Positions 36,935 to 60,326 of a stretch of DNA of 64,000 nucleotides are shown one piece after another (the first letter of the stretch is position 1; each line of letters begins with the position of its first letter). Source of the DNA: Stropharia rugosoannulata. Taxonomy: Eukaryota; Basidiomycota; Agaricomycetes; Agaricales; Strophariaceae. The stretch lies in assembly GCA_028532985.1 (NCBI GenBank), contig JANCIK010000007.1, positions 3,100,001 to 3,164,000 of the forward strand, read 5' to 3'. A program made the translations under genes and the position numbers. The notes below the pieces were generated by a model. The model had not been told where the DNA came from, searched no databases, and saw only the letters and a list, made by a program, of their open reading frames with translations.

Positions 36935-38328
36935 TGAGAGGTCTGCCGCGGGGCTAGACTCGAATCACAAGAAACACAACACACACAACCCCAGCGGAGC
37001 GAGATCCTATCCCCTAGATCGAGCGACGCTCTTCAGCTAAGCGGAATATAGATGTCTACGCTTTTCCTGGTCCTCTCCGCTGAGCGACTGTGATGTTTAA
37101 GAGTTTCGTAAGTTCAGTCCAGATGTCCGCTGTACAGTGCCTGCAAGTTCGTTTTTTAAGGAGGGGTTTAATTCTAGAAGTCTCAGATTAATGTCTGGGC
37201 GACCTCCGCTGAGCGCAGGGTATCGATAGTAATGTATAGTTTTGATGGTGGCTCCGCGGGGCTTATTCCGCTGAGTGGGTTTGAGGTCCGGTGACCGATG
37301 CAGATGCTCACACAAGCTGGTATTCCCAATTGTGCCTCGCTCCGCTGACTATCCACAGTCCTATTCCGCTGAGGCTATCCAGAACCTCGTTCACCCGGTG
37401 GTGCAGTCTCAAATCTCAAAACACTACAGCGCGAGTTTTCGTACACGGTTGCACTGACTCCCCGCTGAGCTCTCCAAATGACCCGGTGGCCAGAAGCTAT
37501 CCAAAACTTCTATAATTCACAATACACTTCACAGTTAAAACCCTAACAAAAGCTAGACACAGCCCGCTGACGGTCTGGGACGGAGCCCAACACACAGATC
37601 TAGTGGGTAGACAATTGCTTAATTTCCGTAGTTACAATTACAAGTTTATATAGACGCGCGCTGTGTACTAATTTAGGTGGAGAGTAAATACTAGCAACGC
37701 CGGACCAAAGGTCCGCTGAGCGCATGTGCCTCCGCTGGGCGTTTTTTTGATGACTACTCCGCTGAGCGCGACCTGATCCCGTTGCGCCGCCAGCCTCCGC
37801 CGAGAGACGCCGTTTAACCCCGCTGGGCGGTTCCTTCTTGGTCATCGAGGCCTGGTTACCGCTGCCAAAGTTCCCCAGCGGAGTCCGTGCTGTGTGCATT
37901 ATTCATTCCCTCGGGCATCACACGCTCCAGCGCGCACGCCACGGTCACCTGACGAGTGGACTTAGGCAAATTTCGCCTTCGTGATGTGTTCCGCTGAGCC
38001 CTTTTTGGGACGCCGTCTACACACAGTCCTGCTCGTCGCCTTTGATATTTTCCGCTCAGCTGTACTCCTGCCTTCCGCTGGGACGACAGTAACCGTTATG
38101 TGCTCCGCTGACAGCTATTCCAGGTAATCCAACTGTGTACTTATGACCCGTACAGTCCGCTGAACCCCACACAACCGCCCGCTGAGCACACGCGTGATGA
38201 TTTGTGATGCACGCGCTGAGCGCTGAGACGACTGATCAGGCTAATCACCGCTCCGCTGTACCCCTGCACTCCAGCCCAAACCGCTCGCTGTGGCCACTTA
38301 CAGCCTTGGTATAAACGCAGGCCTGTCA
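36935..38328 (-). repeat. LTR, 3' copy in element orientation
   Basis: 1,394 bp, TG...CA ends. Contains about twenty CCGCTG/CAGCGG copies by eye. Holds a TATATAA box on the minus strand at ~37,645. The ORFs in it (e.g. 37,097-37,315) repeat in both LTRs and have no coding character. Confidence 0.92.
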
Positions 38329-38366
38329 TCTCCCCCTCACTAAAAATTTTGACTGTCCTCAGTCAA
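38329..38366 (-). promoter_or_regulatory. polypurine tract plus hairpin next to 3' LTR
   Basis: On the minus strand AGTGAGGGGGAGA directly abuts the LTR TG, the expected place for plus-strand priming. It is preceded by a hairpin, TTGACTG-TCCT-CAGTCAA (38349-38366). A near copy of the whole unit sits at 41,130-41,167. Confidence 0.75.
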
Positions 38367-38665
38367 GATCCGCCTGTATTTTTAGACTCAGTACTGTCCC
38401 CGCGTCTACTTTTAGCGCCCCATTTTCTATTTTCAGCTTTCCCCAGCGCCTATTTGCCTATCTTTAGCTTCTCGGTCGTCTCCGATGTCCACTTTCATTG
38501 TTATCCGTTTCTCTCTCTGTTTAAGGATATTCTTTCCCTTTTTCAGCCTTGTGCCGCTGCTTCTAAACCCCCGCTCTCTATGTAGGTCGCCTGAAAGTTT
38601 ATGTGACGCCGCCACCCCGTACTTTTATCTTCCAGAAAATTCTCCCGCTGGGCGAGCCTTTGTCT

Positions 38666-38671
38666 TATAAA
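38666..38671 (+). promoter_or_regulatory. TATA box of cargo gene 1
   Basis: TATAAA about 95 bases before the ATG at 38763, followed by a C/T-rich leader. Confidence 0.45.
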
Positions 38672-38762
38672 CGTCGGATACTGCTCTCTGGCCCTTCTCA
38701 TCCTTTCTTTCCCCTCTCCTCCTGCAGACCCCCTGCATACTTTCTTCTCTAGTCTACCGAAC

Positions 38763-40769
38763 ATGGCTTTTCGCAATTTCGACCGCCGCCAGCGCGAGAA
38801 AGAGCGCGCTGAGGCCCTTTTAGACGCTCAAGACCGCTTCCGCCGCCTCCGCCCCGCGCTCATGGTTTATCAAGAGTTCGAAACGTTGGCTGGTGCCGAC
38901 AACTTGCCTGACGACGGAATGGCGCGGTTAGACGAGCTTCGGGTGGTCATCGACAACGCTGTCGAGGACCACCTGAGCTTTCATTGCTCTGACGGCCTCT
39001 ACCACAACGGGGTCCGCGAATTTTGCATCCTCCTCTCCGCTGTGGCCAACATGCTTATCGCCAACGACCCCTCCCTGGCCCCGACGCTGCAAGCGCGTCG
39101 CTGGTTCACGAGTGGTCACCAGCCCCTGTCCTCCTACGTTCATTTCTTTGCTACCGCCTTCCCTACTCAGTGGGATGGCTCTTCCGCCCCAGGCCCTCGC
39201 CCCCTCTCCACCTCCGCTCCGCTCGTCTCTCCTGCCCCTCCTCCCATCCAGGCCGCTCCCGCTGCGGAGGATATTATCATGGTTTCAGACGACGAAGTTC
39301 CACGGCCCCCTTCGCCTTCGCCCGCGGTTCGTAAGGACAAACGCAAGCGTCTTCCTACCCCTCCTGTCGTCTTCGTTCCTCCCGCGCCGCCCCCAAAGCT
39401 AATTAAACGCCAGCGCCCCGCTGCGCTCGCGGCCAGCGCTGCTATCGCTGGTAAGTTTTTCTTTTAGATTTCTTTATTCCTCTATCCTGATCCTTCCCAG
39501 CCCAAGCCGATCTCGAGTCCCCAGCGGTAGTTTCCGTCGTCCGCTCCGCTGGCGGTCCTACCTTGGCCCTGACCGACAGCGGAATTGAAGAGATCACCAA
39601 TACCCGCCCTGATAGCAACAAAATCGCGTACAAGTCTACCTATCCCATTCTCGACGTCTTGCCCCCTGTGTTCTCCGCTAAACTCGCCCTGGCTGGCGCT
39701 CCTCTGCCCGACGCGATTGACATGAGCATGCTCCCCTCTGAGGCCCGCCTCGAAGGCGCTATTATTGTGCGTGTCTTATCTGCCCGCTGGGCGCCCCTTT
39801 CTATTTTTACTAACTGGTTTTCCACTTCTCACAGAAGGGAATGGTGTGCAATCACTGCGCTCGTCCTTTCAATGCTCGCATAAATGAAGGCCTTCACCAG
39901 TGCATCTGCCGCGGGTGGGCGCGGAATTGCTGTACTTGCAGTACCCAGCAAAAAGGAAAATGCCTCTTTTGTTGTGAGCCCGCGGAGGTCGACAAGACTA
40001 TCGAGGACTCCTCCCTGTGGCATCGCACTTCCTTGACCAGTGAGTCTATTTCCCATCTCTTTTCTCTTATTCTGACTTGTAATTTTCTTTCTTTCTAGGC
40101 CTTCTGTCTGGCTTCGCTCGCCTCAGCGCCTATACAGAGCAAGCTCGCGTGGCTGAAGAGCAGCGCCGCTCCGCGGAGCGCATGTTCTTTGGTCAACTCA
40201 TTGAACTTTCCCAGCTGGCGCGCGCCATGGCGCTCACCCTTCCCACTGGGATCATTGTTGGCCCGCGCTTCCGTGATTGCGAAACCTTCGACGCTCTCCG
40301 CTGCCTCGACCTCGATCGACTCCACGAGGCCTACGCCTCTCTTTGTGCCCCCGCTGTCGTGGAAGACCCCCTTATCGTTGCCCCCGCCGCCTCTTTCTAC
40401 GATCCAAAGCATCCGCGCTTCAATCCTACCACCTTCATCCCTGCCCCCCAGCCTGACCAGGCCATCACTCTAGAGGCCTTCAATGCGGCCGAATCTCAAG
40501 CTTTCGAGGACGCGGCCCTCCGCCAAGCTGAAGAGGCCGACGCTATCATCGCAGCGGAGAAGGTCAAACGCTCGCGCGATCGTTCGTCCAAGAGAGGGAC
40601 TCCCGCGGACGGCTCTCTTCCCGCCACTCCCTCCGCCAGTACTTCGCGCCTCGAGCCCTTAACCACCACTTCCAAGGGCAAGGCCCCCGCTGTGGCTCGC
40701 ACTTTCCTGACTCCTTCGCGCGTCCCTAGCGAGGTAGACGCCGCCGAGGTTCCCGCGGAGGGGGATTGA
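38763..40769 (+). CDS. retroelement cargo gene 1: Cys-rich, coiled-coil protein (4 exons, 609 aa)
   Basis: CDS join 38763-39450, 39501-39766, 39835-40039, 40099-40769. Donors are GTAAGT, GTGCGT and GTGAGT, acceptors all YAG, phases 1-0-1. Residues 1-140 are helical, with NFDRRQREKERAEALLDA at the start. Residues ~140-230 are Pro-rich, with basic clusters (RKDKRKR, KLIKRQRP) that may be nuclear signals. Exon 3 encodes a cysteine-rich segment, CNHCARPF, CICRGWARNCCTC, CLFCCEP, likely binding zinc. Exon 4 is a long charged helix and a Ser/Pro tail. No family is recognised. It lies antisense to the retroelement genes, just inside the 3' LTR, with its own TATA box. The open frame contrasts with the frameshifted gag/pol. 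A role in DNA or RNA binding is only suggested by the Cys cluster. Confidence 0.75.
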
Positions 40770-41129
40770 GGGATGTCGCGCGCTCCGCTGGTTGTCAGGC
40801 CTTGGGGCCTTTATTTCTCTTTTCTACATTTCTTGTTCTCCTGCTCTGTATTACTTTATCTGGCATATGTAAAGTAAATTAGATCTTGCTATAATCAAAT
40901 ATGCCTCCTTTGCTCTGTCTTCTTTTGTGTGACTTTGCAACTTCTCAAGTCCTTAGCCATAGACTCCGCCCCGCTGAGCAACCTGCAGACCTCTGAGGAG
41001 GTGTCCTAGCTGTTGGCCGGGTTCTCCTCCTACAGCTGACCTCTCTTCTGCTATCTTTCTCTTTTCTTAGGTCCGCTCAGCGGACTTCTTTTCCCCACAC
41101 GTGCTCCGCGGCCATATTTTTGCGGGCTC

Positions 41130-41167
41130 TCTCCCCCTCACTATAAAATCAACTGTCCTCAGTTGAT
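41130..41167 (-). promoter_or_regulatory. internal second copy of polypurine tract plus hairpin
   Basis: Minus strand GTGAGGGGGAGA preceded by the hairpin ATCAACTG-TCCT-CAGTTGAT (41148-41167). It matches the terminal unit in length and loop. The stem differs at two pairs with both strands changed, so pairing is kept. It may act as a central polypurine tract. On the plus strand the same unit contains the TATAAAA of cargo gene 2. Confidence 0.55.
41142..41148 (+). promoter_or_regulatory. TATA box of cargo gene 2
   Basis: TATAAAA 53 bases before the ATG at 41201, followed by a T/C-rich leader. Confidence 0.5.
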
Positions 41168-41200
41168 AGGCTCTTTATTCTTCTTCTTCTTCCTTTAGTC

Positions 41201-41669
41201 ATGCAACGCTACCAGCGCACCAATGTCGCCCGCCAGTTCACCTCCATCCTCAAGCAGCTGGCTGTCCATGTTGAGCTCACAGAAGACTCCGCTGAGACCA
41301 CGCTCCATTTGTCGTTGCAGTCCGCGCAGGCTGTTGTCCGTGCTCTGGTAAGGCCTACTTCTATAAATTCTACTCCGCTGACTATTTCCACAGGATCGTA
41401 TTACCCTCCCGCTGAGATTCGTTGACTTTAATCGCCAATTTCAGGCGTTCCTCATGACCATCGTGTTTTACGAGGCCCGCGCTCAGCGGACATTCAGCGA
41501 TGATCACTTCGACCCGCGCTACTCAGTAACGCCTTTACGCGTTCTCGACCGATACAGTCATCTGGGCATGCCATTCCATCTGTTGCCTTCTTCTGAACGA
41601 ATTGCAGCCGATGTTCAAGAAGTGGACCCTGATGCCGCGCTCATCGTAGACGATGTGTGCTCTGATTAG
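41201..41669 (+). CDS. retroelement cargo gene 2: small helical protein (2 exons, 140 aa)
   Basis: CDS join 41201-41347 and 41394-41669; 46-nt intron with GTAAGG donor, a CTGAC branch-like site inside the CCGCTG motif, and CACAG acceptor. Starts MQRYQRTNVARQFTSILKQL and ends with the acidic tail LIVDDVCSD. It appears helical throughout and has no recognised domain, signal peptide or membrane segment. It follows cargo gene 1 on the same strand with its own TATA box. The short length alone would be weak evidence, but the intron, phase and promoter all agree. Confidence 0.65.
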
Positions 41670-41694
41670 GTAGTCGCTGCGCTGACCATCTACG

Positions 41695-41706
41695 TATATA
41701 ATATAA
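41695..41706 (+). promoter_or_regulatory. TATA box of cargo gene 3
   Basis: TATATAATATAA, 30-41 bases before the ATG at 41736. Confidence 0.5.
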
Positions 41707-41735
41707 CTCCTCTGTCTGTATTCCTATACGCCAAC

Positions 41736-42280
41736 ATGCCCTCCTTGTCCGCTGAGAGTAATCTCTTATTACGTGCCCATTCCGATCCTCGCATCCTTCG
41801 TCTCGATGCTTTGTCCCGTCGTCCGCTAAGCGACATTCCTCCTCACGATGTAGCCCGAGTATGCCGAATCTATATAACTGCCCTTCACTATATTCTGGAC
41901 TCCGCTGCAGAGGAACAGCTACCCATGAGTGTCTGCCTCCCGCTGCTTAACCGAGTTCAAGATCATGCTGTAAGCCCCTTCTCCACGGTCCATGCACTCC
42001 CACTGAGTAGTCCGCGCAGCGCGGCCTAGAGCTGACCGAGTCCACCTGTCATTCACCGCTTCTTTCTCATCTCTGCGCTCAGCTGTATTACACCGAACTT
42101 GTGCTTCGTCTGTGTGGTACCAACGACGCTGAGCGCTACGGCGTTCTTAATCACACCGAACACTTTCAACGCCTCCATTACGCCGCCCAGCATTTCTACC
42201 AGGAGGACTTCTTCCCCGTCTGTCCCCTTTTCTCTTCCTTCCCCGCTGCGCTGAGACCAAGATTATGTCAGGATGTTTGA
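41736..42280 (+). CDS. retroelement cargo gene 3: small helical protein (2 exons, 143 aa)
   Basis: CDS join 41736-41969 and 42083-42280; GTAAGC donor, GCTCAG acceptor, phase 0. The protein reads MPSLSAESNLLLRAHSD at the start, continues helical (DVARVCRIYITALHYILDSA), then exon 2 gives YYTELVLRLCGTNDAERYG and YAAQHFYQEDFFP. No known family. Its size and two-exon layout recall cargo gene 2, but I see no clear residue similarity. The intron is 113 nt, longer than most in this window. The following 450 bases before gene 4 hold only CCGCTG motifs and a TATA box. Confidence 0.6.
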
Positions 42281-42689
42281 GGTATTGCGCCCCTTCCTTG
42301 GTTTACTCCGTAGGGTACCCTTGTTACAGTAACCAGAGTAAATGGCTATTACATGTGGTGCCTCCTTTGCTATTTGAAATGACAAGTATCTAGTTAGGCA
42401 CTATGTATTGTCGGTGCCAATACCTGATTCGGACATAATTTTTCCATATGCGGTAATCACACGATCAGCCTCCGCTGAGCGCTTTCAGCTAGGCGCGCCT
42501 CTCCGCTGGATCTCATTTCGTCTATCAACTGCTCCCGCTCTGCACCCCGTTTTATGCGAGCGTGCATGTGGTGGTCTGTCTCTACCTCCAGCGTTCATAC
42601 CATAACTCCGCTGGGAGTCTGGTCCGCTGGGATGCCACATTCCTCGTCGCTGGCCGCCCCTCATTAGGTCCTCTGCGCTCCGCTGAGCC

Positions 42690-42698
42690 TATATATAT
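42690..42698 (+). promoter_or_regulatory. TATA box of cargo gene 4
   Basis: TATATATA about 40 bases before the ATG at 42734, directly after a CCGCTGAGC motif. Confidence 0.5.
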
Positions 42699-42733
42699 GC
42701 CCTACTCTCCTACTTTGAATCACTCAGCTACTA

Positions 42734-44047
42734 ATGTCCAACGCACCCGCTCCGCTGTACAACTTTAGTAATGTCAAGCACCAGCTGGCATTAATCCAAG
42801 ATATCAGAGGCTTGGCTTCCGCCATGCCTTCCAACTATACCGGGAGCCTCGAGCTTCTGGCTATTGACTTAGTACGCACAGCACTTAGCTGGTCTGCTGG
42901 GTCTTTTACTCCGCTGACCACTCGAACTTTTTAGAACCGCTGGCGTGATCCCCACGGCGGCATTACTCGTATCATTAATAACAGCGAGGCTGTTGATATT
43001 CTCAACGAGACGCGTGCCATCTACACCTCCTTAGAGGCGGATCACCACTTCCGCACTTTCTCTCCCGCTGCCAACGCTTTTATCACTCTGCATGAGCAAG
43101 TTTTAAAAGCGAAAGCCGCTGCTTCGCGCCAGCGCATGCATACTCCCACTGGACCAGTACGCTGTGTGCTTGCTGCCTTTCTTTATCTTTTTAATCGTCC
43201 GCTCAGCGCAACGTTCGCCTCCTCTCGCGCTCCGCTGCCGATCCTGAGACGGTCTCTGCCCCCGGAGGTACCTCCTCCCCCGATTCTGATGACGACAAGG
43301 TGTGACTGACTTCCTCACCCTTTTAGATATTACTAACATGCAGCTGTACCTCCTCCTTAAAAAGATGGCCCTCGATGACAAGATCGAGGCTGCCACTGAG
43401 GGCGGAGTACCTAGCCGCCAGAATACCCCAGAGCCTAGTCCTTCGAAGAAGCGCTCAGCGCCTCCTCCCGACACTCCTCGTCAGGTTCGTTCTGTTGCGT
43501 TTTCCCTCCCTCGTTACTTTCTCACTTCTATGTCAGCGAGAGCGTACTGAGGCCAGCGGACATCGCACTCGCGTGCTTGGCCGCGGCATGACACTCCGCT
43601 CTTCTGACAACCGGCGCCCTCTGCACGACACACCTTTCCACGACGCTTCCTCTAAGAAGGCTCGTCTCGGCGCTGACGGCGTTCCTACTTTCGCCGATTC
43701 TCCTTTCATTGTGCAGGGTGCGCTATTTGCCCTTATTCTTCTCTGTCGCGTCCGCTGAACTCTTTCATCTTCTTTTAGGTACCAATCTCACTCTCTCGAA
43801 CGACAAGGTCAATGCCTGTCTCGACGCTGCTACCAACCTCATTAAGGAACCGCTGAACACCGGGAACCCCTCCGAGCTCGTCACTCGCCGTCTCATCGGA
43901 GATTTGCAGGCTGAGATCATCTGTGACTTGCACAAGATTGACTTCATCCTGAAGCGCCGCGCTCTGCTCGTTAACGAGTTAGAGACTTTACAGCGCAGCT
44001 TGGATTTGACTGGGACCAGCCCCGCTGAGGAGCCCGCGCCGCAGTGA
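42734..44047 (+). CDS. retroelement cargo gene 4: multi-exon hypothetical protein (6 exons, 347 aa)
   Basis: CDS join 42734-42871, 42935-43156, 43207-43299, 43344-43484, 43537-43717, 43779-44047; five short introns, all GT-AG and phase-consistent. The N-terminal ~120 residues are helical (NVKHQLALIQDIRGLASAM, then NRWRDPHGGITRIINNSEAV). The middle is disordered, with PSPSKKRSAPPPDTPRQ and many Ser/Arg/Pro. The C-terminal ~90 residues are helical again (NACLDAATNLIKE, DLQAEIICDLHKIDFILKRR) and end in a Pro/Glu tail. No family is recognised. It runs tail-to-tail with the integrase gene, 120 bases apart. Five intact introns in a 1.3 kb gene inside a young retroelement are explained by its antisense orientation: the genomic RNA carries the complement, which is not spliced. 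Confidence 0.75.
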
Positions 44048-44167
44048 CGGCCCTCTTAATTACTCCGCTGAGCGCCTCAAAGTGGTCCTTAGCTAGTTTC
44101 TTTTGTACCTTTCTCCTTTAGTTTACCCAATATATTCTATTGTGGTCTCCTTTTCTACTTTGTGCCT

Positions 44168-46290
44168 CTAAGCATCGGGCTCCGCCCACCCATCCTCATC
44201 ATCATCTTCTTCGTCCGCTGAGACTTGGCCGCTGCCTGAAACCACTCCTGGTTCATCAAAGATATAGTCTTTAGGTATGGCCGGCTCGTAGTCTGGCGCT
44301 GACATCATCTTGTTGAGGTTCTCCCGCGTTTGATCAATGATATCGTCTAAGTCCGCTGGCAGCTTCAGCTGACGCCTGGCAAAGTAGGGTATTAAACGGA
44401 ATGCTGCGACTTTGTCTTTCAGCACCGACCCATCCAGCTCAGCGACTAGATAAGCGCCTCCTTCCTTCCGCGCGATGACGATGTATGGTCCATTCCAGCG
44501 CGCCAACATTTTGCGATTTAAGCTGGACTCAATGCCAGAGTTACGCATCAGTACGACATCGCCAGGTTTGAACGCATAGTCTCTGATCTTAGCGGAGTGT
44601 TTCCGCTCGAACTCTCTGATAGCATCCCGCTTTATCTTTGACACCCGCTGACGCATCTCCTCCACTGTGTCCCTATGTTTGGCCAGCGCACGCGCACGAT
44701 ACCCTACTAACTCCTCTGTGGTAAGTACCCGATCTGGTAACTTGACCAGCCACGTCGCTTCAGCGATGTCCAGCGGTAGTATCGGGTGCGCGCCAGTGAC
44801 CATGAAGAAGGGTGAACACCCAAATCCGCGGCGCACTGTAACGCGGTCTGCCCACAGCACATGGTAGAAGAACTTGCTCCAGCGCTTATGTGCGCCCTCG
44901 GTACCTCCACACGCTTTCCACAACATTTGTCTGATGTCCCAATGGGGCCGCTCTATCTTTCCGTTCGCCTGAGAGTTGTACGCTGAGATGGTAATCCCTG
45001 TAATACCATACTTCTTTTCTAAGTACTTGAGCGCTGCGCGGAACGGTCCACCGTTATCTGTGATTATCTCTCTAAGACATCCCCAGCGGCAGATAATATC
45101 CTCAAACATCCACTGCGCTATCGCCCTTGCATTCTCTTTCTTCAGCGGACGACCTTCCACCCATGAGCTCAGCGCACACCGTCCGTGCACTATGTAGTTA
45201 TACCCATTTGAGGCAGGCGACATGTGCATAGTGTCCGCGTGTAGCTGCTGGAAGATGGAAGGCGTATGTGTCTCCGTCCGCGGAATCTGGATGATCGTCT
45301 TTTGCCTCAGCTGACACACATGGCATGTCTTGACATACCAGTAGACGTCCCGCTCCAGCTCTGGCCACCAGAAGCGCTCCATCAGCAGTTTGCGCGTGGC
45401 GTATGCGCCTCTGTGCCCCAGACTATCATGCGCGGCACGCAACATACGCGTCCGCTGAGCGGGATCAACTACTAGTTTATGTGCCTCGTCCACTGAGCGC
45501 CGGTACATCCGCCCATCCTTGTCTAAGAAGAAGTTTCGTGCGTTACGGATGAAATTCTGATACTCCCGCTCGCTCATATCCTTGGGTCTTGTACTGGGAT
45601 TTTGCAGCCAATACCTTATCATTGGCAGCTTATCATCCATGTCCTTCCCCGCTGACGCTCGGTTCCGCTCATCGTACTCTTCGTCTTCCAACTCATCTAT
45701 CTTTGATTCTGGAATTACATGTGCCAGAACAAATTTCTCTAAGTACGCCCGCTGAGCGGCGACACCTCCTCTGTCTGTAGGAAGTTACGCACTGTCCGCT
45801 GTTCTTCTCTCGTCTCTTTTCTCGCCCGCTCCAGTTCTAACTGGAAACAGTCAACCGAATGTGCCTCCGTTCTAGCTGGCTCAGCGGGACCATCAAACAA
45901 CTCGTTGAGGAATCCAGCTTGTAGATATCCTCCGCGGTCGTCAATCTGGTCCTTGAACTCTTCTAAACTCAGCGGGTCGGGATCCTCTTCATACACTTTC
46001 TCGTACTCCAGCGGACCTACTTCTTGGTCATCATCCTCCGCCGAGTGCTCATACTCTTCATCTCCTGGTTGTCCTTCTCGTCGCGACAGGCCGTCCGCGC
46101 CAAACGTTTTGCCTGCTACATGCTTCAGCTGAAAGTGGTACATAAGGATCTTGTCTATCCAGCGGTTAATGGTAGCGTTAGGTCCCATGCCCGGATTATC
46201 CAACATCCCTTTGAGATATTTGGCATCCGTCTCCACTACCAACTTCCGCGCTCCGATGAGCCAGTAATAGCACGCCTGCAGCGCTCGCAA
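44168..46290 (-). pseudogene. Gypsy RNase H C-terminal part and integrase, one frameshift
   Basis: The upstream ORF (46290-45739) continues RNase H: LYGLLRALQACYYWLIGARKLVVETDAKYLKGML, then GADGLSRREGQ. The downstream ORF (45691-44168) is integrase. Its H-H-C-C zinc site is in HDSLGHRGAYATRKLL...CHVCQ, the DDE core has LHADTMHM, ITDNGGPF and NGKIERPHW, and a chromodomain-like or GPY-type tail follows (LARWNGPYIVIARKEGG). The frame changes between 45,740 and 45,700, at the string CCGCTCAGCGGGCG. There the reading SPLSGRT-stop must shift to AYLEKFVLAHVIPE. The DDE residues are intact. Either a frameshift signal or a disabling indel could explain the break. Confidence 0.85.
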
Positions 46291-46335
46291 TAGCCCATAT
46301 AGCTCTCTCTTTGGTTGTGAGAACCGCTGTTCCTC

Positions 46336-48258
46336 TCAGTTAACAGAATTGACCCAAAGCGGGCGTACACGCTTCTTCGCGTTCAGCGGATCTTGCTGGT
46401 AGATATAAAATCCTACAGCGCGCCAAGACGTATCTACTGCCAACGTGATTGGTCCTGGCAGTGTATAGTCCAGCGGCTTAACACAGTGTGCGTTCCGCGC
46501 TCCATCCTTCAGCGCATCCATACTGGCTTGCTGCGCTGGCCCCCACTCGAAGGGTTCTTTCCCACGCAACAATCTCTGTATGTGCTCCGCTCGCTTAGCG
46601 TAGTCTGAGATGTAAATACGCAGGAGTCCCATTGTACCCATGAAGGCGCGCACATCGCTGACATTCTTACACGGTCCCCAGTTGAGGATGGCGTGCACTT
46701 TATCTGGCGCTGGCTTTCGACCTTCGTAGGTACATAAGTGTCCCACCACTACAATCTCCGCTGCACACAATATGGATTTCTTTCCGCTGAAAGTCCCTCC
46801 TGAGTACTTCATCCGCTGAACTATCCTATTCACATTCTGCATGTGTTCCCACACGAAACGCCTGATTCCGCTGTTCTCCGGAATCGTCTCGTACCCTCCA
46901 TCCTCTAATTCGTACCGTGTCTTTGGTCCGCGGATAGGCACATCGTCAATGTACGGCTCCGTGACGTCTGGTATTTCATCGCGGAGAATATAAGTTACAT
47001 CTTCATGAAAGATGGGTACAGAATTGGTCCAGCCCATTGGCAAGGTCACTAAGCGGAGCGCACCAAACGGTGTCTGGAATGTTGTTAAGTCCCGAGACGA
47101 CTCCGCTAAGAGCCGCTCGTCGTAGCCTACATACAAATCCAGTATTCCGCCACACGCACGCCCAGCGAAGTGTTCTGCCAAACTCTCCGCTGCCGGTGGC
47201 AATCCTGAGTGCGCGATGGTAACAGCGTTCAGCGGCTCTAAGCTATGTACTATTCTAAAGGACACCCCGTCTTTCTTTGTTACTGTGAACCAGCGCGACC
47301 GGTATGATGAACTGGATGGTTCATAAGTCCCAGCGCGGATCTTAGTAGCGATGAACTCGCACACCCGCTCGTACATGCCTGGCGGAATGGGTATATTTTT
47401 CAGTACCCACGGCGTATGTTCTACCGTTGGAATATCTACCGGCGGGAAGAAGTCTGTTCTAAACCTCCCCTTTTCCGTGTCATCCCACGCGAACGCCTCA
47501 TTCTGCTGCATGAACACCTGATGTACTAGCTTGCGCTCTTCTGGCCACAGGAAATCTCCTCCGTGCGCTTTATCTATTTCCTCCTTCCGCTCCGCTGTGT
47601 ACCTTCCCGTGGGTACGAACTCTGGTGGGTGTACCGTCAGCGGAGGCATTTCCTTCAGCGGATCTCCCTTTATCTCTCTCACTATTCTGAATTTCTCTGG
47701 CAGCTCTTGATAAACGGGCCTGACCTTGTCAGCGACTGGTTTATATTTCTTTCCTGCAAAGGCGGTTATGGTAGTGGCATTCTTACCAGTTAACCGCTTT
47801 CTAGTTACTCCTTTCCGCGCTGACTGGCCTTGCTCGGGGTCCGCTGAGCGGAATTGCCCCCTAGGCTCTCCTTTCACCGTCTCTTTTTCTCGCCATTCTT
47901 TTTGCTGAAAGTACTTATAAATTGATGCTTTCTCTTTATCCTCCATCTTAGCCTCGTGCACAGCTTGAGCCATGTACACATCTCTCAGCTCAGCGGAGCC
48001 AAATCTCCCTCCCTTCTTTGGCAACGCATACCCCGCTATCTCTATCTTTCCAGTCCTATCATCCCGCTCGAACATTAACGCGACCTCTCCTTGACGCATC
48101 AAATCATCGAGGACTGAAAATCCTGGTCGGCGTGCGGCTCCTCCGCGCTGGAGTCCTGCACATCTGGCTCCCGCTGAAGTATCTTCGCCCGCACCTCGAT
48201 TATACGTAGGTACCACTAGCTTCCGCTGAGTGTTTGGGTCCGTCAGCGTAAGTTCCAC
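46336..48258 (-). pseudogene. Gypsy reverse transcriptase-RNase H, frame breaks at both ends
   Basis: A 640-codon frame with the RT core: FRIVHSLEPLNAV, LDLYVGYDERLLAESSRDL (motif A), FQTPFGALRLVTLPMGWTNSVPIFH, YIDDVPIRGP (motif C, YxDD), and a typical GTFSGKKSILCA and RAFMGTMGLLRIYISDY. It then runs into RNase H (AVDTSWRAVGFYIYQQD). The frame ends WVNSVN-stop, whereas family members read FGSI-L-x-E-x-RFSQPKREL. Two successive frame changes near 46,320-46,350 are needed to reach the RFSQPKREL frame. Upstream, two indel-like shifts (near 48,262 and 48,300) separate it from protease. It belongs to the abundant agaric Ty3/Gypsy type. Confidence 0.85.
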
Positions 48259-48276
48259 TGTGCCATCCCCGCGTCT

Positions 48277-48840
48277 TCACATTGCTTTCAGTGAGAATCT
48301 CGAACGGCTTCCCAACAGAACCTCATAGGCGGCCGCGCTGATAACGTGCACTTGTAGGTACACTGTCAGTCCGCTGAACACAAAAGGTACATTCCGCGCT
48401 AAGCCCTTAGTCGACTCGACTTGTTTGTTAGCGCTCTGCATCCTAATGGTAAAGTCAGGATCCCAGCTTAAGCCTAGTCGCTCCGCGGTATCTTGCGCCA
48501 TGGACACTATTTGCGATCCGCTGTCGAGCAGAGTCTCTGCACGGCCTTTCCCATTGATCAGCGGAAATACCGCCTTGAGATGGTGCGATTCTCGTGCCAC
48601 AATTAATCCCTTTGGCTTTTCGCCGGGTTGTAGCGTCGAGATGTATTGCTCATAAGGATCCTCCATGATTATTGTGCCGGGTTGTAAGCCACCGCGCTCC
48701 TCCGCGCAAGTGAGGAATGTCGCCGCTGGGAGCTCGTCCATTCGCATGAACTCTTCTTCTTCATTCTCCTGCTTCAGCTGGGCGATGGCCTCGTCCATCT
48801 CCCACTCTTCTGCCTCATAATCCAGCTGCAAAACCCGCAT
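48277..48840 (-). CDS. Gypsy retropepsin-type protease segment
   Basis: A 187-codon frame. The aspartic protease active site is AETLLDSGSQIVSM (D-S-G), followed by NVPFVFSGLTVYLQVHVISAAAYEVLLG, the flap and second strand region. The C-terminal RSRFSLKAM replaces the expected PFEILTESNVKTRGDG, seen in an adjacent frame, so a one-base loss near 48,300 breaks its fusion to RT. Upstream of the ATG the frame stays open to ~48,900. Normally this is part of a Gag-Pol polyprotein. Confidence 0.7.
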   Translation of the reverse strand: MRVLQLDYEAEEWEMDEAIAQLKQENEEEEFMRMDELPAATFLTCAEERGGLQPGTIIMEDPYEQYISTLQPGEKPKGLIVARESHHLKAVFPLINGKGRAETLLDSGSQIVSMAQDTAERLGLSWDPDFTIRMQSANKQVESTKGLARNVPFVFSGLTVYLQVHVISAAAYEVLLGSRSRFSLKAM

Positions 48841-49353
48841 GGTATTTACATCCAGCGGAACCTTGCGCGGTATGATACGCTCGACAAACTTCCTCCTAAA
48901 CCCGCTGTAGAGATCCCCAATAATTGTCCTTGAGTGATCTCTATTTTCTGCTCTCTAAACGCTTAAGGACTTCGTCCGCTTGCGCTTCATCCTCAATGGC
49001 CGCGCAACTTATACGCTGGCTTCCTCTTCTCTATCACTGGCATCGGCGCCTCTCTTACAGGCGGCCGACTTTTCTGGTACGCGCAGCGGAGGAACCATTA
49101 CATACGGCACCTGCGCTGGCTTTTTATTCTCCCCAACTTTCTGCGCTGGCGCTGCAAAGCTTACTTTCTTTTTCTCCACTCCGCTGGGCGCCTGTCTACT
49201 GATCTCCTCTATGAACTCTTCCTCATCTCCGCTGTCGACCTCCTCGATAGTTGTCCTTGGTGTACTTCTTACTGGTAGCTTCTTATTTACGCCTTCCGGG
49301 TTCTTGGGTTTATCAGAGCCGCTACGCTGAACTCTGCCCGCGCTTCATCAGAC
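48841..49353 (-). other. polyprotein linker, frame-broken
   Basis: Pieces such as TTIEEVDSGDEEEFIEEIS and FVERIIPRKVPLDVNT are readable in different minus-strand frames. This suggests a former continuous linker between gag and protease interrupted by stops and shifts. Confidence 0.5.
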
Positions 49354-51395
49354 TCAATCGAAACCCTGGCTCAGCGCTGCATCCCGCTCCGCTTTCATGG
49401 TCGCGATCAGCTGCCGCTGTTCCTCTATCACCTCCTCTGGCGTCTTGACCGCTGAGCGCTCCTTTAAGAACGCCTTCCGACTGTCCAGCTCCTGTTGTAG
49501 TGTTCGAATTTGCTCCTCATAAGTCTCATCGAGAGAGCTGGCTGGTTGGTAGACCTGGGCATACACCATGCTCGGCGGAGTCCCCATGTACGCTGGGTGT
49601 ACCGGCGCCATGTAGGTCTGCTGCGCTGGCGGCCCATTCTTCTTATGCCACTCGTCTACACGTTCTTTGATAGCGCGCGAAGGGTCCCAAGGTAATGACG
49701 ATCCATCTGGCAGCTGGAGCCTTCCAGCTTCCGTGATGATTATCTTCCCAGCGGACAGATCCTGTTGCCTCACAATACACTCCGCTACGATGTGTCCCGT
49801 CTGTTTACAATAGAAGCACCTCGGTTCAGGTCGCTGTTGGTATTGAAACGACGCGGCGGCGCTCCGCTGAAACCTGGTCCTCCCATTGGCATCATAGGTA
49901 CCGCTGGCTGGACTGGCGCAGCGACAGGCGCTGCCCGCGACGACATTACATTGCGCAGAATATCTTCCAACTCCTTCTTATTGGTCTCCTTTGACTTCGA
50001 CACCGTCTTTTCTACCAGCGACAACGTATCTTTAAACGACGCTACAAAACCCTTCAAGTCCTCAATTTCCGCGCAGCGTATGCACCTCCGCTGACTCGGT
50101 CTTGATAGCAGGCACAGGCATGAGCCCGTCCGCTGAGTCCCGACTCAAGCTGAGTGAAGTGCTAGGATTCTTGGTGCGCGCCATCTGCTCTGCCATTTCC
50201 GCCACCTGTTTCAGCGGATACATGTCCTCAGTCCGCGCTTCCACCTGAATCCCCGCTGGCGCCGTAAAGGGTATATTGCGTTCCTTTAGGTACTTGTCAA
50301 ACGACGTTCTCGTAGTGTAGTCGATATCCAGCTTGTTAAACAACCTCTCCCTGAACCCCGCTGTGAGACTGTTGGTGAAGTAGGTCACCAGCGTATGATT
50401 AGCCAGCAAGGTAGGCGCCTTGGTCAACTTCGCTGCCTCCGCTAAGAATGCCCGCTTGAAGTTCAACAGCACCTGGAGGTCTTCCTCCGAGATGCGCTGG
50501 TTCTCCTTGCATAGCTTCTTTAGGCGCGCGATGGACCCCGTCTGAATACTGATCACCTCAGGATATTCATTGAGGATCATCTTCTTCAGCTCAGCGTAAC
50601 TCTTGGTGTCATAGCCTGGTAAATTCTTCCACTCCTCCGCTGTCTGCATGGGTACATATTTGATTACATAGCCTCTCCTCTCATCATCCTCCGTCACCTC
50701 AGCGCTTGAACCAGTCCTCTAAGTCCTCGAAGTAGCGTGGGAGTTCATCACGCTCAGCGGAGGGGTCGAAGCTTGCACCAGCGCTCCGCGCACAGGCATA
50801 GATGTTTCCTTAGGCATGGTGATAATTTCCGGGGGCGGTTCGTGTTTACTTGTGGAAAAGTCTGATAATTCCCCTTCAAATATATCTCTGGCCACGCGCT
50901 CGGCCTCGCTCTCACTATTATCTGTCGTCCGCTGAGCGGATCTCTTAGCAGTCTCGAATACTTCCGAAAACGGAGGAGGTGTGTCTTGAGTAGCTTGGCT
51001 ATCTGATGAGCCAAATGGTGCAGCTTCAAGCGTAATGTCTCCGTCCGCTGAGCGGTCGTCTGTTTCAATTCCAGAAGGCGGTCCCCAGAATCCGCTGGGC
51101 CCGTCCTCCCGCTCTGAGTCACTCTCTGTAAGCGCTCCTGGTACGCGCTGAGCAAGATCCTGCGTTTCTATCTGTAGCCACGCCTCTTCCCTTGCTTTCC
51201 TCTTCGCTTTCTATCTCGAGTAGGTGTAATCACCAATGGTTCCACAAGCTCGGCGTCTTTCTTGCTCCTAGTCGATCGCCCGCTCGGAGGTAGTATACCA
51301 AATGATGGTCTAGCCTCCGCTGGTTCTGCTAGCGACGACGGTGCAGGAAATTTGCCTCGCTTGTTACTCGTCCCCGTTGTATTTGAAATTTTTGA
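49354..51395 (-). pseudogene. Gypsy gag, several frameshifts
   Basis: The N-terminal disordered piece starts near 51,390 (KRGKFPAPSS, PSFGILPPSGRSTRSKK). A capsid-like core follows: LPRYFEDLEDWFKR, then after a one-base shift EVTEDDERRGYVIKYV (ORF 50697-50062) with LQVLLNFKRAFLAEAAKL and LVTYFTNSLTAGFRERL. A further shift leads to EIEDLKGFVASFKDTLSLVE. A third leads to the zinc knuckle CFYCKQTGHIVAEC and the C-terminal 49773-49354 frame. At least three shifts lie at or beside CGCTG/CAGCGG strings. Gag normally forms the particle and binds RNA; this copy would need rescue in trans unless the shifts are programmed or are assembly errors. Confidence 0.75.
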
Positions 51396-51458
51396 AATGT
51401 TTTGTAATAGGCGCTAAGCCGTGGTCCCCGAAACACTATATGAGATTTCTGAACCTAC

Positions 51459-51476
51459 CCCTCGCGGTGGGCTCCA
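51459..51476 (-). promoter_or_regulatory. primer binding site
   Basis: Two bases after the 5' LTR the minus strand reads TGGAGCCCACCGCGAGGG. It begins TGG as required to pair with a tRNA 3' CCA. The donor tRNA was not identified. Confidence 0.55.
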
Positions 51477-51478
51477 GA

Positions 51479-52874
51479 TGAGAGGTCTGCCGCGGGGCTA
51501 GACTCGAATCACAAGAAACACAACACACACAACCCCAGCGGAGCGAGATCCTATCCCCTAGATCGAGCGACGCTCTTCAGCTAAGCGGAATATAGATGTC
51601 TACGCTTTTCCTGGTCCTCTCCGCTGAGCGACTGTGATGTTTAAGAGTTTCGTAAGTTCAGTCCAGATGTCCGCTGTACAGTGCCTGCAAGTTCGTTTTT
51701 TAAGGAGGGGTTTAATTCTAGAAGTCTCAGATTAATGTCTGGGCGACCTCCGCTGAGCGCAGGGTATCGATAGTAATGTATAGTTTTGATGGTGGCTCCG
51801 CAGGGCTTATTCCGCTGAGTGGGTTTGAGGTCCGGTGACCGATGCAGATGCTCACACAAGCTGGTATTCCCAATTGTGCCTCGCTCCGCTGACTATCCAC
51901 AGTCCTATTCCGCTGAGGCTATCCAGAACCTCGTTCACCCGGTGGTGCAGTCTCAAATCTCAAAACACTACAGCGCGAGTTTTCGTACACGGTTGCACTG
52001 ACTCCCCGCTGAGCTCTCCAAATGACCCGGTGGCCAGAAGCTATCCAAAACTTCTATAATTCACAATACACTTCACAGTTAAAACCCTAACAAAAGCTAG
52101 ACACAGCCCGCTGACGGTCTGGGACGGAGCCCAACACACAGATCTAGTGGGTAGACAATTGCTTAATTTCCGTAGTTACAATTACAAGTTTATATAGACG
52201 CGCGCTGTGTACTAATTTAGGTGGAGAGTAAATACTAGCAACGCCGGACCAAAGGTCCGCTGAGCGCATGTGCCTCCGCTGGGCGTTTTTTTTTGATGAC
52301 TACTCCGCTGAGCGCGACCTGATCCCGTTGCGCCGCCAGCCTCCGCCGAGAGACGCCGTTTAACCCCGCTGGGCGGTTCCTTCTTGGTCATCGAGGCCTG
52401 GTTACCGCTGCCAAAGTTCCCCAGCGGAGTCCGTGCTGTGTGCATTATTCATTCCCTCGGGCATCACACGCTCCAGCGCGCACGCCACGGTCACCTGACG
52501 AGTGGACTTAGGCAAATTTCGCCTTCGTGATGTGTTCCGCTGAGCCCTTTTTGGGACGCCGTCTACACACAGTCCTGCTCGTCGCCTTTGATATTTTCCG
52601 CTCAGCTGTACTCCTGCCTTCCGCTGGGACGACAGTAACCGTTATGTGCTCCGCTGACAGCTATTCCAGGTAATCCAACTGTGTACTTATGACCCGTACA
52701 GTCCGCTGAACCCCACACAACCGCCCGCTGAGCACACGCGTGATGATTTGTGATGCACGCGCTGAGCGCTGAGACGACTGATCAGGCTAATCACCGCTCC
52801 GCTGTACCCCTGCACTCCAGCCCAAACCGCTCGCTGTGGCCACTTACAGCCTTGGTATAAACGCAGGCCTGTCA
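51479..52874 (-). repeat. LTR, 5' copy in element orientation
   Basis: 1,396 bp, near-identical to 36935-38328 (one substitution, two extra Ts in a poly-T run), TG...CA ends, next to the primer binding site. Confidence 0.92.
52189..52196 (-). promoter_or_regulatory. TATA box of the retroelement promoter
   Basis: Minus strand TATATAAA in the middle of the 5' LTR, the expected position for the U3 promoter driving the genomic RNA. Confidence 0.5.
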
Positions 52875-58115: not shown

Positions 58116-58128
58116 ACTTAGCGATTTA

Positions 58129-58932
58129 CAGCTGTTTGCAAAAAGGTTGGCACTCCGCGGCCGCGCGTGAAAGGGATAGCAACTCCGACGCGCGAACCCA
58201 ACGCTAGGGTTTCGGCCATTTGCCTACACTGTCTCTCCGTCCATGCTTTCTCCTAAGCTTATTTTCATTATAAATAATTTCTATCCCACTCTGTTCCTTT
58301 GTTAGCTCTTTCCTCCACCCCAAATTCACCTTTATTTGTGCTGATAATAGCAAAATAAACTGATTATACATAATCATTCTAGGAAATATGTTTATATTTA
58401 TTCTGCTTCCTGATAACTGCCTGTATCTGAGAATATATACACCTGAGATTGAACTGTACATTGTTTGTATGTATTTTTGGGTAAAGGAAGGATAAAGTAT
58501 TGGTGGGATTACTATTTACCAATGTTGTACTAATGTATACACAAAAACTCTTACTAGCTGTCGAGTTTGTTAGCACAGGGCACTTCCTCCAACCAATTAT
58601 ATCCAAGTACCAATTTTAAAAAATACATTTCATGCTAGTTGCAGAGCTTGATGCTCACAATATATATATTCACTGTGTAATCTCACATTTATCTGTATTA
58701 GCAATTATTTCTCAGTATCAGGAACAACGGGTCATTTCTGGTTATTAATATCTAAGCATAAGGAGCACACAATATATTTAAGACATTTTTTATTGCCAAA
58801 AGTCCTCAGAATATGCACAGAGTCAGCAAGGAACGGCCATTGGATAGCAAACCCTAATGTTAGGTTTGCTCTGCGGAGTTTCTATTTCTTTCACGCGCGG
58901 CCGCGGAGTGCCAACCTTTATGCAAACAGCTG
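58129..58932. mobile_element. MITE with ~75-bp terminal inverted repeats, TA target site
   Basis: The left arm from CAGCTGTTTGCAAAAAGGTT and the reversed right arm CAGCTGTTTGCATAAAGGTT continue as near copies through GGCACTCCGCGGCCGCGCGTGAAAG to CTAGGGTTT or ATTAGGGTTT. Each end is flanked by TA. The 804-bp element has an AT-rich, non-coding interior. It inserted 11 bases after the stop of the ten-exon gene. TA duplication fits Tc1/mariner-type mobilisation. Confidence 0.75.
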
Positions 58933-58934
58933 TA

Positions 58935-60326
58935 ACAAGATTTGAACATAAAAGTAGTATACAAAGATTTATTAGTACATTCGTCGTTTGTATAGCTGCA
59001 TAATTGATCATTAGTGGCTGGTTTCTACCAGCCAAAAAATTTATTTTGGTGATATCGACATCCCAAGTGTGAACAATTTATCAACAACTTATGACCAATT
59101 ATGTCTACAAGTATAGCACCAACTAAATGCCTATTAACCGTACAATCGTGTTATATAAATGGCCAATTAGGATCTCATCCATACAATTGAATTCGCAATT
59201 TCAGCCCAACTGGATGTACTTTGACACAACTAAGCTCACAACTTCGAAGGTAATCTTACAATCAATTATGAATTGGCTGGCTTGGAAACATAGGCGCTCC
59301 AATTGTACAGGACAACTTTTATTGTACTACTCTACGGAATTGGTGCGGTTGGGTTGCTTGGGGCGAGTTGGAGTCCTGTACAAGTTCCCCCAAGCAGGGT
59401 GTAGACTTGCTGATGGACTATGTAGTAACCGCTACCCCACAGAACCTGTCCCTGCAAATTCTATGGACTACAAATAATATCAAAGCCAGGTACGGATACT
59501 TACGTACAATGGTCAAGCGCCCAAGTCCTTCGTATCCGTTGCGTTTCCAATCAGGTCTGAGGAGCTACTTAAGAGGTCCTCCTGTCGACCAAGGCACCAG
59601 AGGTATCCTTGGTACGCACGTATACCGCCACTTCTTCAGTACCCGTGAGCGATAACAGATGCTCTGTGCATTAGCAGTAGTCCGGAGTGCTCACAAATTA
59701 TCTATTAGTAAACGCCCCACTGAAGGGAGCCAGCATATTAGTAAGTATGCGTGTCTTCCGTGCTATTTACCCTGCCCAGACACCAGTCAGGTCCACTTAT
59801 CATTGGGAGCCATGTGGCCAGCTGACTATGTATGTAAGAGCGGCAGACCCTAATCTGACAGCAGTAACCGTTTCATCTTGAAACCACAAATGTACCTTTC
59901 GTTTTATATGCATGTGTCTATATGACTCTACATGCACTGTGACCTCGCGTGCACAATAAAGATGGTACACGTAATGTTGACCACGGCATAAATACGTCGT
60001 ATGCGCCGAGTGCGCCCATGGCGCCAGTTGCACATTGCATGTCTGTGCTCGGGCGTAGGCACTCTTGTTCCCTACACTTTGTAACTCTATATACATCTTG
60101 AGGCCTTGAGGGTTTGGAGGTCGAACTTTGGTATATCCCCTACTAGTTATAGCATTGTTGTCACTGCATTTCCAGTTGGATGAAACTACACGTCGTACTA
60201 AAAAACATAGTAAATGTCTATCAATGATTTTTTTCCTCCGCCTTTACACCATCTGACTGTTCAAAGCAAATTCGCACGGTCATTCAAAGTTGACCGGTGA
60301 CCTGACCCCCTGGGGGGTATTCGGAA
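58935..60326. other. intergenic, weak ORFs only
   Basis: Two overlapping plus-strand frames at 59.1-59.7 kb (e.g. 59,368-59,655) have coding-like codons but no start, splice pattern or motif I can defend. They may be a gene fragment. Confidence 0.35.

What the first reader, a model, noticed from the sequence alone, without database searches (positions are those of the whole stretch)
38763..44047. A Ty3/Gypsy retrotransposon carries four intact intron-containing genes in antisense
Between integrase and the 3' LTR the element holds 5.3 kb of plus-strand genes (609, 140, 143 and 347 aa) with ten phase-consistent GT-AG introns and a TATA box before each ATG, while gag-pol runs on the minus strand. 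None of the four proteins is recognised. Antisense orientation would let introns survive passage through genomic RNA, since the complement is not spliced. Near-identical LTRs mean the cargo moved recently. This looks like a cargo-bearing or self-regulating retroelement: one protein has a cysteine cluster and basic signals, and two are short helical proteins. The cargo could be silencing suppressors, packaging aids or regulators; that is inference.
Basis: partly seen in the sequence, partly recalled or inferred. Interest (0 to 1): 0.88.

Follow-up and report, generated by a model that had tools for sequence, protein, structure and literature searches.

The report
Mushroom retrotransposon with self-address code
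A jumping gene in a fungal genome carries four spliced genes on its opposite strand and is saturated with a short DNA word that differs between its two families together with the zinc-finger-like part of one of those genes, which suggests that the element marks and recognises its own DNA.

Summary
Confirmed and extended. The window holds a 15.9-kb Ty3/Gypsy element with four antisense, intron-containing genes (609, 140, 143, 347 aa; ten GT-AG introns). They are a standing part of the family: antisense cargo lies beside 74 of 76 integrase ends examined in this genome. Frames are intact in 10-14 of 14 compared copies, introns drift in length by non-multiples of three, and dN/dS is 0.11-0.18.

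The new result is a motif. The element holds 138 CAGCGG/CCGCTG (dyad CGCTnAGCG 26 vs 0.6 in shuffles). This motif is the top six-mer of noncoding DNA, and ranks first of 2080 in gag-pol against protein-preserving codon shuffles (52 vs 9.4). A sister family with about 90% identical integrase lacks it and is saturated with TGCGCGCA instead. Gene 1's cysteine cluster is its most conserved part within the first family (85%) but 35% identical between families.

Best reading: gene 1 encodes a dimeric zinc-cluster protein that binds its own element's motif, most likely for self-specific anti-silencing or activation. It would work like plant VANC/VANDAL, but in a retroelement. Binding and anti-silencing are inferred. 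The family contrast is one evolutionary event, and no expression data were available.

The parts
36935..38328 (-). 3' LTR (gag-pol is on the minus strand); 21 CAGCGG/CCGCTG sites
38329..38341 (-). polypurine tract next to the 3' LTR
   Evidence: sequence
38763..40769 (+). gene 1, 609 aa; exons 38763-39450, 39501-39766, 39835-40039, 40099-40769
   Evidence: intact in 12 of 14 copies; dN/dS 0.108
39835..40039 (+). gene 1 exon 3: cysteine cluster C323-x2-C326-x12-H339-x-C341-x8-C350-x2-C353-x7-C361, the proposed DNA-reading part
   Evidence: these residues invariant in the 9 sequences; domain identities
40101..40250 (+). gene 1 start of exon 4: predicted long helix, proposed dimerisation helix
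   Evidence: single-sequence model; helix residues 2-46, block pLDDT 71-91 over the first 40 residues, 57 overall
41201..41669 (+). gene 2, 140 aa; intron 41348-41393
   Evidence: intact 14 of 14
41736..42280 (+). gene 3, 143 aa; intron 41970-42082
   Evidence: intact 14 of 14
42734..44047 (+). gene 4, 347 aa; introns 42872-42934, 43157-43206, 43300-43343, 43485-43536, 43718-43778
   Evidence: intact 10 of 14
44168..45784 (-). integrase frame
   Evidence: Pfam Integrase_H2C2 8.1e-19
45739..48276 (-). reverse transcriptase and RNase H frames, interrupted in this copy
48277..48954 (-). aspartic protease
49354..51210 (-). gag-like frames with a CCHC zinc knuckle at 49354-49977
51479..52874 (-). 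5' LTR; 21 motif sites
36935..52874 (.). motif A field: 138 CAGCGG/CCGCTG (109 CCGCTG and 29 CAGCGG on the + strand) through LTRs, introns, exons and gag-pol

Best explanation
The four antisense genes are an accessory operon-like block of the retroelement, each with its own TATA-type promoter and spliced from the strand opposite to gag-pol, so that their introns pass unspliced through genomic RNA. Gene 1 encodes a protein with a zinc-cluster-like cysteine domain followed by a helix that could dimerise it. It binds, as a dimer, dyad-symmetric sites (core CCGCTnAGCGG) that saturate the whole element. Coating its own DNA, it most likely keeps or makes the element's chromatin active (anti-silencing or activation), specifically for its own family. 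When a lineage's protein changes specificity, the element's sequence is rewritten with a new word (TGCGCGCA in the sister family). Shown: spliced conserved genes, motif saturation, family specificity, codon-level enrichment, joint change of motif and cysteine cluster.
For: Conserved cargo. Motif: CAGCGGA 91 in the element vs 3 in the other 48 kb; Markov z 29.5 against top z 4.4-4.5 in two control stretches; 10-mer CCGCTGAGCG 753 in the genome vs 66 for the reversed control. Blind test: the top noncoding six-mer ranks first of 2080 in gag-pol codon shuffles in family A (52 vs 9.4, z 14.3) and likewise in family B (CGCGCA, 29 vs 10.8, z 6.6); each motif is near expectation in the other family's coding DNA. 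Dyads: A CGCTnAGCG 26 vs 0.6; B TGCGCGCA 34 vs 0.8. Coupling: 21 of 21 loci with the A-type cysteine domain carry motif A (6.1-8.5/kb) and hardly B (at most 0.45/kb); 8 of 10 with the B-type carry motif B (2.7-6.1/kb) and little A (0.2-1.3/kb); the two exceptions, L032 and L035, hold 11 and 16 CpG-to-TpG-type variants of TGCGCGCA and low CpG. Gene 1 cysteine domain: A-A identity 0.85, the highest of five segments, A-B 0.35; coiled segment 0.75/0.55. Parallel: an unrelated mobile element (C) pairs a C-x2-C-x6-C-x18-C-x2-C-x7-C plus coiled-coil protein with a dense dyad ACCGnCGGT.
Against: Families A and B are two clades, so the coupling is one evolutionary contrast, not 31 independent ones. Genes 2-4 also differ between A and B (66, 66 and 78% identity for the pairs compared) and cannot be excluded as readers, because inside A they have been homogenised. 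Gene 1's linker and N-terminal part also differ strongly between A and B (0.26, 0.40), though they vary inside A too. The motif is orientation-biased (109:29 overall, 19:2 in an LTR), which dyad binding does not explain. A and B sites do not sit at homologous places beyond chance. No known DNA-binding family matches gene 1; its profile does not match the C protein convincingly (probability 4.5%). The model of the cysteine exon is useless (pLDDT 50). No expression, binding or methylation data.
Confidence: 0.5

Rival explanations
1. Gene 1 (or another cargo protein) reads the motif but represses: a self-encoded copy-number or superinfection-immunity factor that tells family A from family B.
For: Same binding evidence. 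Diverged gene 1 types sit on a young, homogenised backbone, a module-exchange pattern as expected if specificity types matter. Ty1 p22 is a precedent for self-restriction (PMC4599808, search listing only).
Against: A repressor needs few sites; saturation of coding DNA is excessive. The A family is abundant. dN/dS of gene 1 is 0.11, so it is constrained rather than diversifying. No functional data either way.
Confidence: 0.15
2. The motif works in RNA: sites in genomic RNA are bound by Gag or a cargo protein for packaging, export or protection.
For: Orientation bias 109:29 overall and 19:2 in the LTR. The zinc knuckle of gag could be a reader.
Against: Both orientations are enriched on the gag-pol coding strand (34 vs 7.1 and 18 vs 2.6); 13 of the 18 CCGCTG there lie in one frame. 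The motifs are dyads, including the perfect palindrome TGCGCGCA in B. gag and pol are similar between families while the motif differs, although gagA is only 60% identical.
Confidence: 0.12
3. The motif is read by host proteins (transcription or chromatin factors) and the cargo does something else, such as nuclear import or integration.
For: No direct link between gene 1 and the motif has been measured. Many LTRs use host factors (established knowledge).
Against: Two families in one genome use different words together with different gene 1 cysteine domains; a third element repeats the pairing of a cysteine-cluster protein with its own word.
Confidence: 0.13
4. Motif saturation is a by-product of a mutational or repeat-spreading process without function.
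For: Short words can spread by slippage or conversion. Within family A the sites are partly shared and partly turned over (5 of 14 and 3 of 14 window sites shared with L028 and L026).
Against: Strong excess inside coding DNA with the protein held fixed, from a motif chosen on noncoding DNA only, in both families. Unrelated Ty3 loci and window background show nothing similar.
Confidence: 0.06
5. The genes are passive passengers captured by one element.
For: No recognised domains.
Against: Present at 74 of 76 integrase ends, dN/dS 0.11-0.18, conserved in a diverged sister family.
Confidence: 0.02

Closest known systems
VANC proteins of Arabidopsis VANDAL transposons (sequence-specific anti-silencing)
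   Same: A TE-encoded accessory protein paired with a short family-specific motif repeated in its own family; related families carry different protein and motif (passages of PMC5735166 and PMC10398659).
   Different: VANDALs are not LTR retrotransposons. VANC motifs lie in tandem repeats in noncoding DNA; here the words are dispersed and also fill coding DNA. Binding and loss of methylation are measured for VANC, not here. Homology of gene 1 to VANC was not tested directly.
aORF-3R: antisense additional ORFs between pol and 3' LTR (maize Grande gene23, rice RIRE2, Silene Retand, PvRetro13, fungal Boty)
   Same: Same place and orientation, conserved in the family, proteins without known relatives, function unknown (PMC7264820, parts 1 and 2 of 3 read).
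   Different: Four genes with ten introns rather than the single antisense ORFs described there; dense motif with a proposed reader.
TnpA of maize Spm
   Same: A transposon-encoded protein that activates its own element together with demethylation (passage of PMC10398659). That TnpA binds a repeated short motif in the element ends is recalled.
   Different: DNA transposon; binding sites near the ends only (recalled).
Fungal Zn2Cys6 regulators (Pfam Zn_clus)
   Same: Cysteine cluster followed by a helix; dyad DNA sites. The C-element protein approaches the cysteine spacing and its word contains CCG-n-CGG.
   Different: Gene 1 has a 14-residue first loop and a conserved histidine; no Pfam match. 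The C protein reaches only E 4.1.
HTLV-1 HBZ (antisense spliced retroviral gene)
   Same: A spliced regulatory gene on the strand opposite to gag-pol (recalled; the review mentions the HTLV antisense promoter).
   Different: Single gene in an animal retrovirus, no saturating motif known to me.

Membership tests
Ty3/Gypsy LTR retrotransposon | two near-identical LTRs with TG...CA and a target-site repeat | tested here: met
   1 mismatch, 2 gap columns; 4-bp GCGT
Ty3/Gypsy LTR retrotransposon | order protease, RT, RNase H, integrase | tested here: met
   (RT itself weak in Pfam, E 0.071, below cut-off)
Ty3/Gypsy LTR retrotransposon | PBS matching a tRNA, and PPT | tested here: inconclusive
   PPT present; PBS-like TGG stretch but no tRNA matched
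aORF-3R antisense accessory ORF | antisense coding region between pol and 3' LTR, conserved in the copies of the family | tested here: met
VANC/VANDAL-type anti-silencing | family-specific short motif enriched in the element | tested here: met
VANC/VANDAL-type anti-silencing | motifs as tandem repeats in noncoding regions | tested here: not met
   sites dispersed, also in exons and gag-pol
VANC/VANDAL-type anti-silencing | carried by a VANDAL (Mutator-like) DNA transposon | tested here: not met
   LTR retrotransposon
VANC/VANDAL-type anti-silencing | protein binds the motif and removes methylation | not testable with these tools
   needs experiments
VANC/VANDAL-type anti-silencing | protein homologous to VANC | not tested
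   no direct comparison; gene 1 alignment has no convincing Pfam match
Zn2Cys6 (PF00172) | match to the family profile | tested here: not met
   (C-element stretch only E 4.1)
Zn2Cys6 (PF00172) | spacing C-x2-C-x6-C...C-x2-C-x6to8-C (recalled) | tested here: not met
   gene 1: x14 in place of x6; C protein fits except a longer middle loop

The most novel reading that the evidence does not exclude
A retroelement carries its own self-address code: a spliced antisense gene encodes a dimeric zinc-cluster protein, and its word is written about 140 times through LTRs, introns and, by synonymous choice, gag-pol. The protein's specificity and the whole element's wording were replaced together in the sister family, giving two orthogonal self-specific anti-silencing systems in one fungal genome. 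An unrelated mobile element uses the same design with a third word.
Probability: 0.4. Interest if true: 0.93.

Novelty: new variant of a known kind. Interest (0 to 1): 0.82.

Why it matters
Sequence-specific anti-silencing is known to me only from plant DNA transposons; my searches listed no fungal or LTR-retrotransposon case, within an open-access library and those terms. If true, a retroelement rewrites its own coding DNA as an address label, and two closely related families in one genome give natural orthogonal pairs of protein and word. That makes the long-open function of antisense accessory ORFs directly testable, and offers pairs for studying how protein and genome-wide site specificity change together.

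Tried and rejected
Large protein collection with gene 1 alone and with a nine-sequence alignment: no hit at E 0.001, with about 8000 candidates scored each time. The collection does hold Agaricales (integrase search, 465 hits, 120 listed), but gene 1 is split by introns, so absence from it is weak evidence; genes 2-4 were not searched there. PDB by profile: none for gene 1, only weak matches (E 0.33 or worse) for genes 2-4. AlphaFold on the cysteine exon: pLDDT 50, discarded. Homology of gene 1 with the C-element protein: not supported. Homologous positions of A and B sites: tested three ways, not beyond chance (gag-pol 6 vs 2.9, 116 of 2000 shifts; LTR 3 vs 2.2; cargo 1 vs 2.3). First idea that strand bias means RNA: kept as a rival. 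L030, first taken as a gene-1-only element inside 117-bp repeats, aligns as a rearranged B copy. L032's gene 1, first taken as a third type, is a decayed B fragment beside a C insertion.

Rows dropped before counts: gene 1 dN/dS without L012 and L018; gene 4 without L010, L016, L018 and L021 (broken frames); only pairs with dS 0.05-1 (30 of 66, 86 of 91, 82 of 91, 44 of 45). The integrase survey used 76 of 81 matches, those reaching the C-terminus, and the printed, capped gene 4 list; of the three without listed cargo, one was read and has it, two were not examined. The codon test for B left out the gagA piece, and its RT piece has 2 stops. One search examined 8 of the 10 B-type loci (not L034, L038). 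LTR pairs 14.4-14.7 kb apart, by eye: 7 of 7 hold cargo; one search scored 40 of 328 candidates.


Full report
What is there. The element spans 36935-52874 of the window, which is contig C7 3100001-3164000 of a 48-Mb genome in 20 contigs. The LTRs differ by 1 mismatch and 2 gap columns and are flanked by GCGT. gag-pol is on the minus strand. Between integrase and the 3' LTR lie four plus-strand genes with ten GT...[CT]AG introns and proteins of 609, 140, 143 and 347 aa.

The genes are real and kept. The window and 13 further copies were compared (L009-L021). Intact frames: gene 1 in 12, genes 2 and 3 in 14, gene 4 in 10 of 14. Splice sites are kept while intron lengths move out of register, for example 49 to 72 bases in gene 1 intron 2 and 44/45/46 in gene 4 intron 3. 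dN/dS by a Nei-Gojobori count is 0.108 (codon bootstrap 0.083-0.121), 0.178 (0.123-0.242), 0.153 (0.076-0.268) and 0.145 (0.113-0.212) for genes 1-4; very young pairs have higher ratios, 0.46-0.83 in gene 1, as expected of copies decaying after insertion. Of 76 integrase matches that reach the C-terminus, 73 have a cargo match on the opposite strand within 2.5 kb; one more was read (L042); two were not examined.

The cargo zone is mosaic. Against the window, genes 1-2 fall to 58-80% DNA identity in several copies, while the LTR end stays at 91-100% and gene 4/integrase at 92-100% (L017 is truncated at the LTR). Synonymous divergence of gene 1 reaches 2.4 while that of gene 4 in the same copies is near 0.1. 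Old gene 1 types are thus carried on a young backbone.

The motif. CAGCGGA occurs 91 times in the element and 3 times in the other 48 kb of the window; CCGCTGAG 41 and 0 times. The core CAGCGG/CCGCTG occurs 138 times: 21 per LTR, 4 in 606 bases of cargo introns, 25 in 3729 bases of cargo exons, 11 in 1504 bases of cargo spacers, the rest in gag-pol. Against a Markov expectation CAGCGGA has z 29.5; the strongest word in two control stretches of the window has 4.4 and 4.5. In eight unrelated Ty3 loci the commonest 7-mer occurs 5-7 times per 3.5 kb. In the whole genome CCGCTGAGCG occurs 753 times, its reversed control 66 times; the 100 places listed cluster in copies of this family, with scattered singles. 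As a dyad, CGCTnAGCG occurs 26 times against 0.6 in 20 dinucleotide shuffles.

The motif is written into coding DNA. I took the commonest six-mer of noncoding element DNA and asked how it ranks in gag-pol against 200 shuffles of synonymous codons that keep the protein. In family A it is CAGCGG, first of 2080 (52 vs 9.4, z 14.3). In family B it is CGCGCA, also first of 2080 (29 vs 10.8, z 6.6). Other common noncoding words of B rank low in coding DNA (ATGCGC 125th, CGCATC 111th). In one search motif A is near expectation in B coding DNA (8 vs 4.5, z 1.9) and motif B in A (3 vs 2.6). Both orientations are in excess in A (34 vs 7.1; 18 vs 2.6), but outside coding DNA the orientation is biased (19:2 in the LTR), which remains unexplained.

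The sister family. In the same genome a second group (L029, L031 and others) has about 90% identical integrase (84-91% for most such matches; 93% and 88% over two pieces), the same four genes in the same order and antisense orientation, gene 1 only 42 and 39% identical, and genes 2-4 at 66, 66 and 78% for the pairs aligned. It is saturated with TGCGCGCA (34 vs 0.8 in shuffles) and has little motif A. By locus, 21 of 21 with the A-type cysteine domain carry motif A at 6.1-8.5 per kb and GCGCGCA at no more than 0.45. Of 10 with the B type, 8 carry GCGCGCA at 2.7-6.1 per kb. The two exceptions are decayed: L032 and L035 contain 11 and 16 transition variants of TGCGCGCA, against 0-6 in six other B loci, with CpG observed/expected 0.63 and 0.71 against 0.89-1.02. 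This is one contrast between two clades.

Which protein reads it. In gene 1 (seven A and two B sequences) the cysteine segment has the highest identity inside A, 0.85, and falls to 0.35 between A and B; the following helix segment goes from 0.75 to 0.55, the middle from 0.77 to 0.55, the N-terminal part from 0.61 to 0.40, the linker from 0.52 to 0.26. L028, whose gene 1 is 53% identical to the window's, still has motif A and a 0.69 identical cysteine segment. Six cysteines and one histidine are invariant. A single-sequence model gives a 45-residue helix right after the cluster, suggestive of dimerisation and in keeping with dyad sites. Genes 2-4 cannot be excluded.

An independent parallel. 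Two B copies (L032, L034) are interrupted by another mobile element, C (94% identical between them; at least seven full-length protein copies at 93-100% in the genome). It encodes a 613-aa protein with C-x2-C-x6-C-x18-C-x2-C-x7-C and a coiled coil, and carries the dyad ACCGnCGGT (6-8 vs about 0 expected). A relative 59% identical in protein (L040) keeps the word; one 40% identical (L041) shows T-flanked forms 19 times and A-flanked forms 5 times, a smaller shift resting on one locus. C and gene 1 are not shown to be homologous.

Mechanism. The design works like VANC/VANDAL: a TE-encoded accessory protein and a family-specific word that differ together between families (PMC5735166 and PMC10398659, passages only). 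Membership fails: this is a retroelement, and the words are dispersed and fill coding DNA. All three words contain CpG, and decayed copies have lost CpG, which would fit CpG methylation as the silencing to be overcome; methylation was not measured. I put 0.5 on gene 1 reading its own element's word for anti-silencing or activation; repression, RNA function and host readers share most of the rest.

Print. The review of antisense ORFs (PMC7264820, parts 1-2 of 3 read) describes single antisense ORFs of unknown function. Ten searches of an open-access library listed no fungal retroelement of this kind; most papers of subscription journals are not in it.

Noticed in passing
window 41127-41165 and 38330-38368: A box CTCCCC[CT]TCACTA followed by a short dyad occurs beside the 3' LTR and again before gene 2; the dyad arms differ in sequence but both pair. 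It could be a second (central) polypurine tract or a shared promoter box.
   Followed up: partly
L032 138-4021, L034 1-3853, L040, L041: A separate mobile element (C) with its own dense dyad word and a cysteine-cluster coiled-coil protein; its type and ends were not determined.
   Followed up: partly
window 38330-41830: Gene 1-2 zone far more diverged than its flanks between copies, a module-exchange pattern.
   Followed up: partly
L032, L035: Old copies have lost CpG, including inside the words; a hint of CpG methylation in this host.
   Followed up: partly
L030 1604-5861: Rearranged sister-family copy in which gene 1 is followed directly by an LTR fragment.
   Followed up: partly
window 44168-48954: pol of the window copy is interrupted although its cargo is intact.
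   Followed up: no
window 58126-58935: Inverted repeat with 87-nt arms, 87% complementary, 636 nt apart.
   Followed up: no
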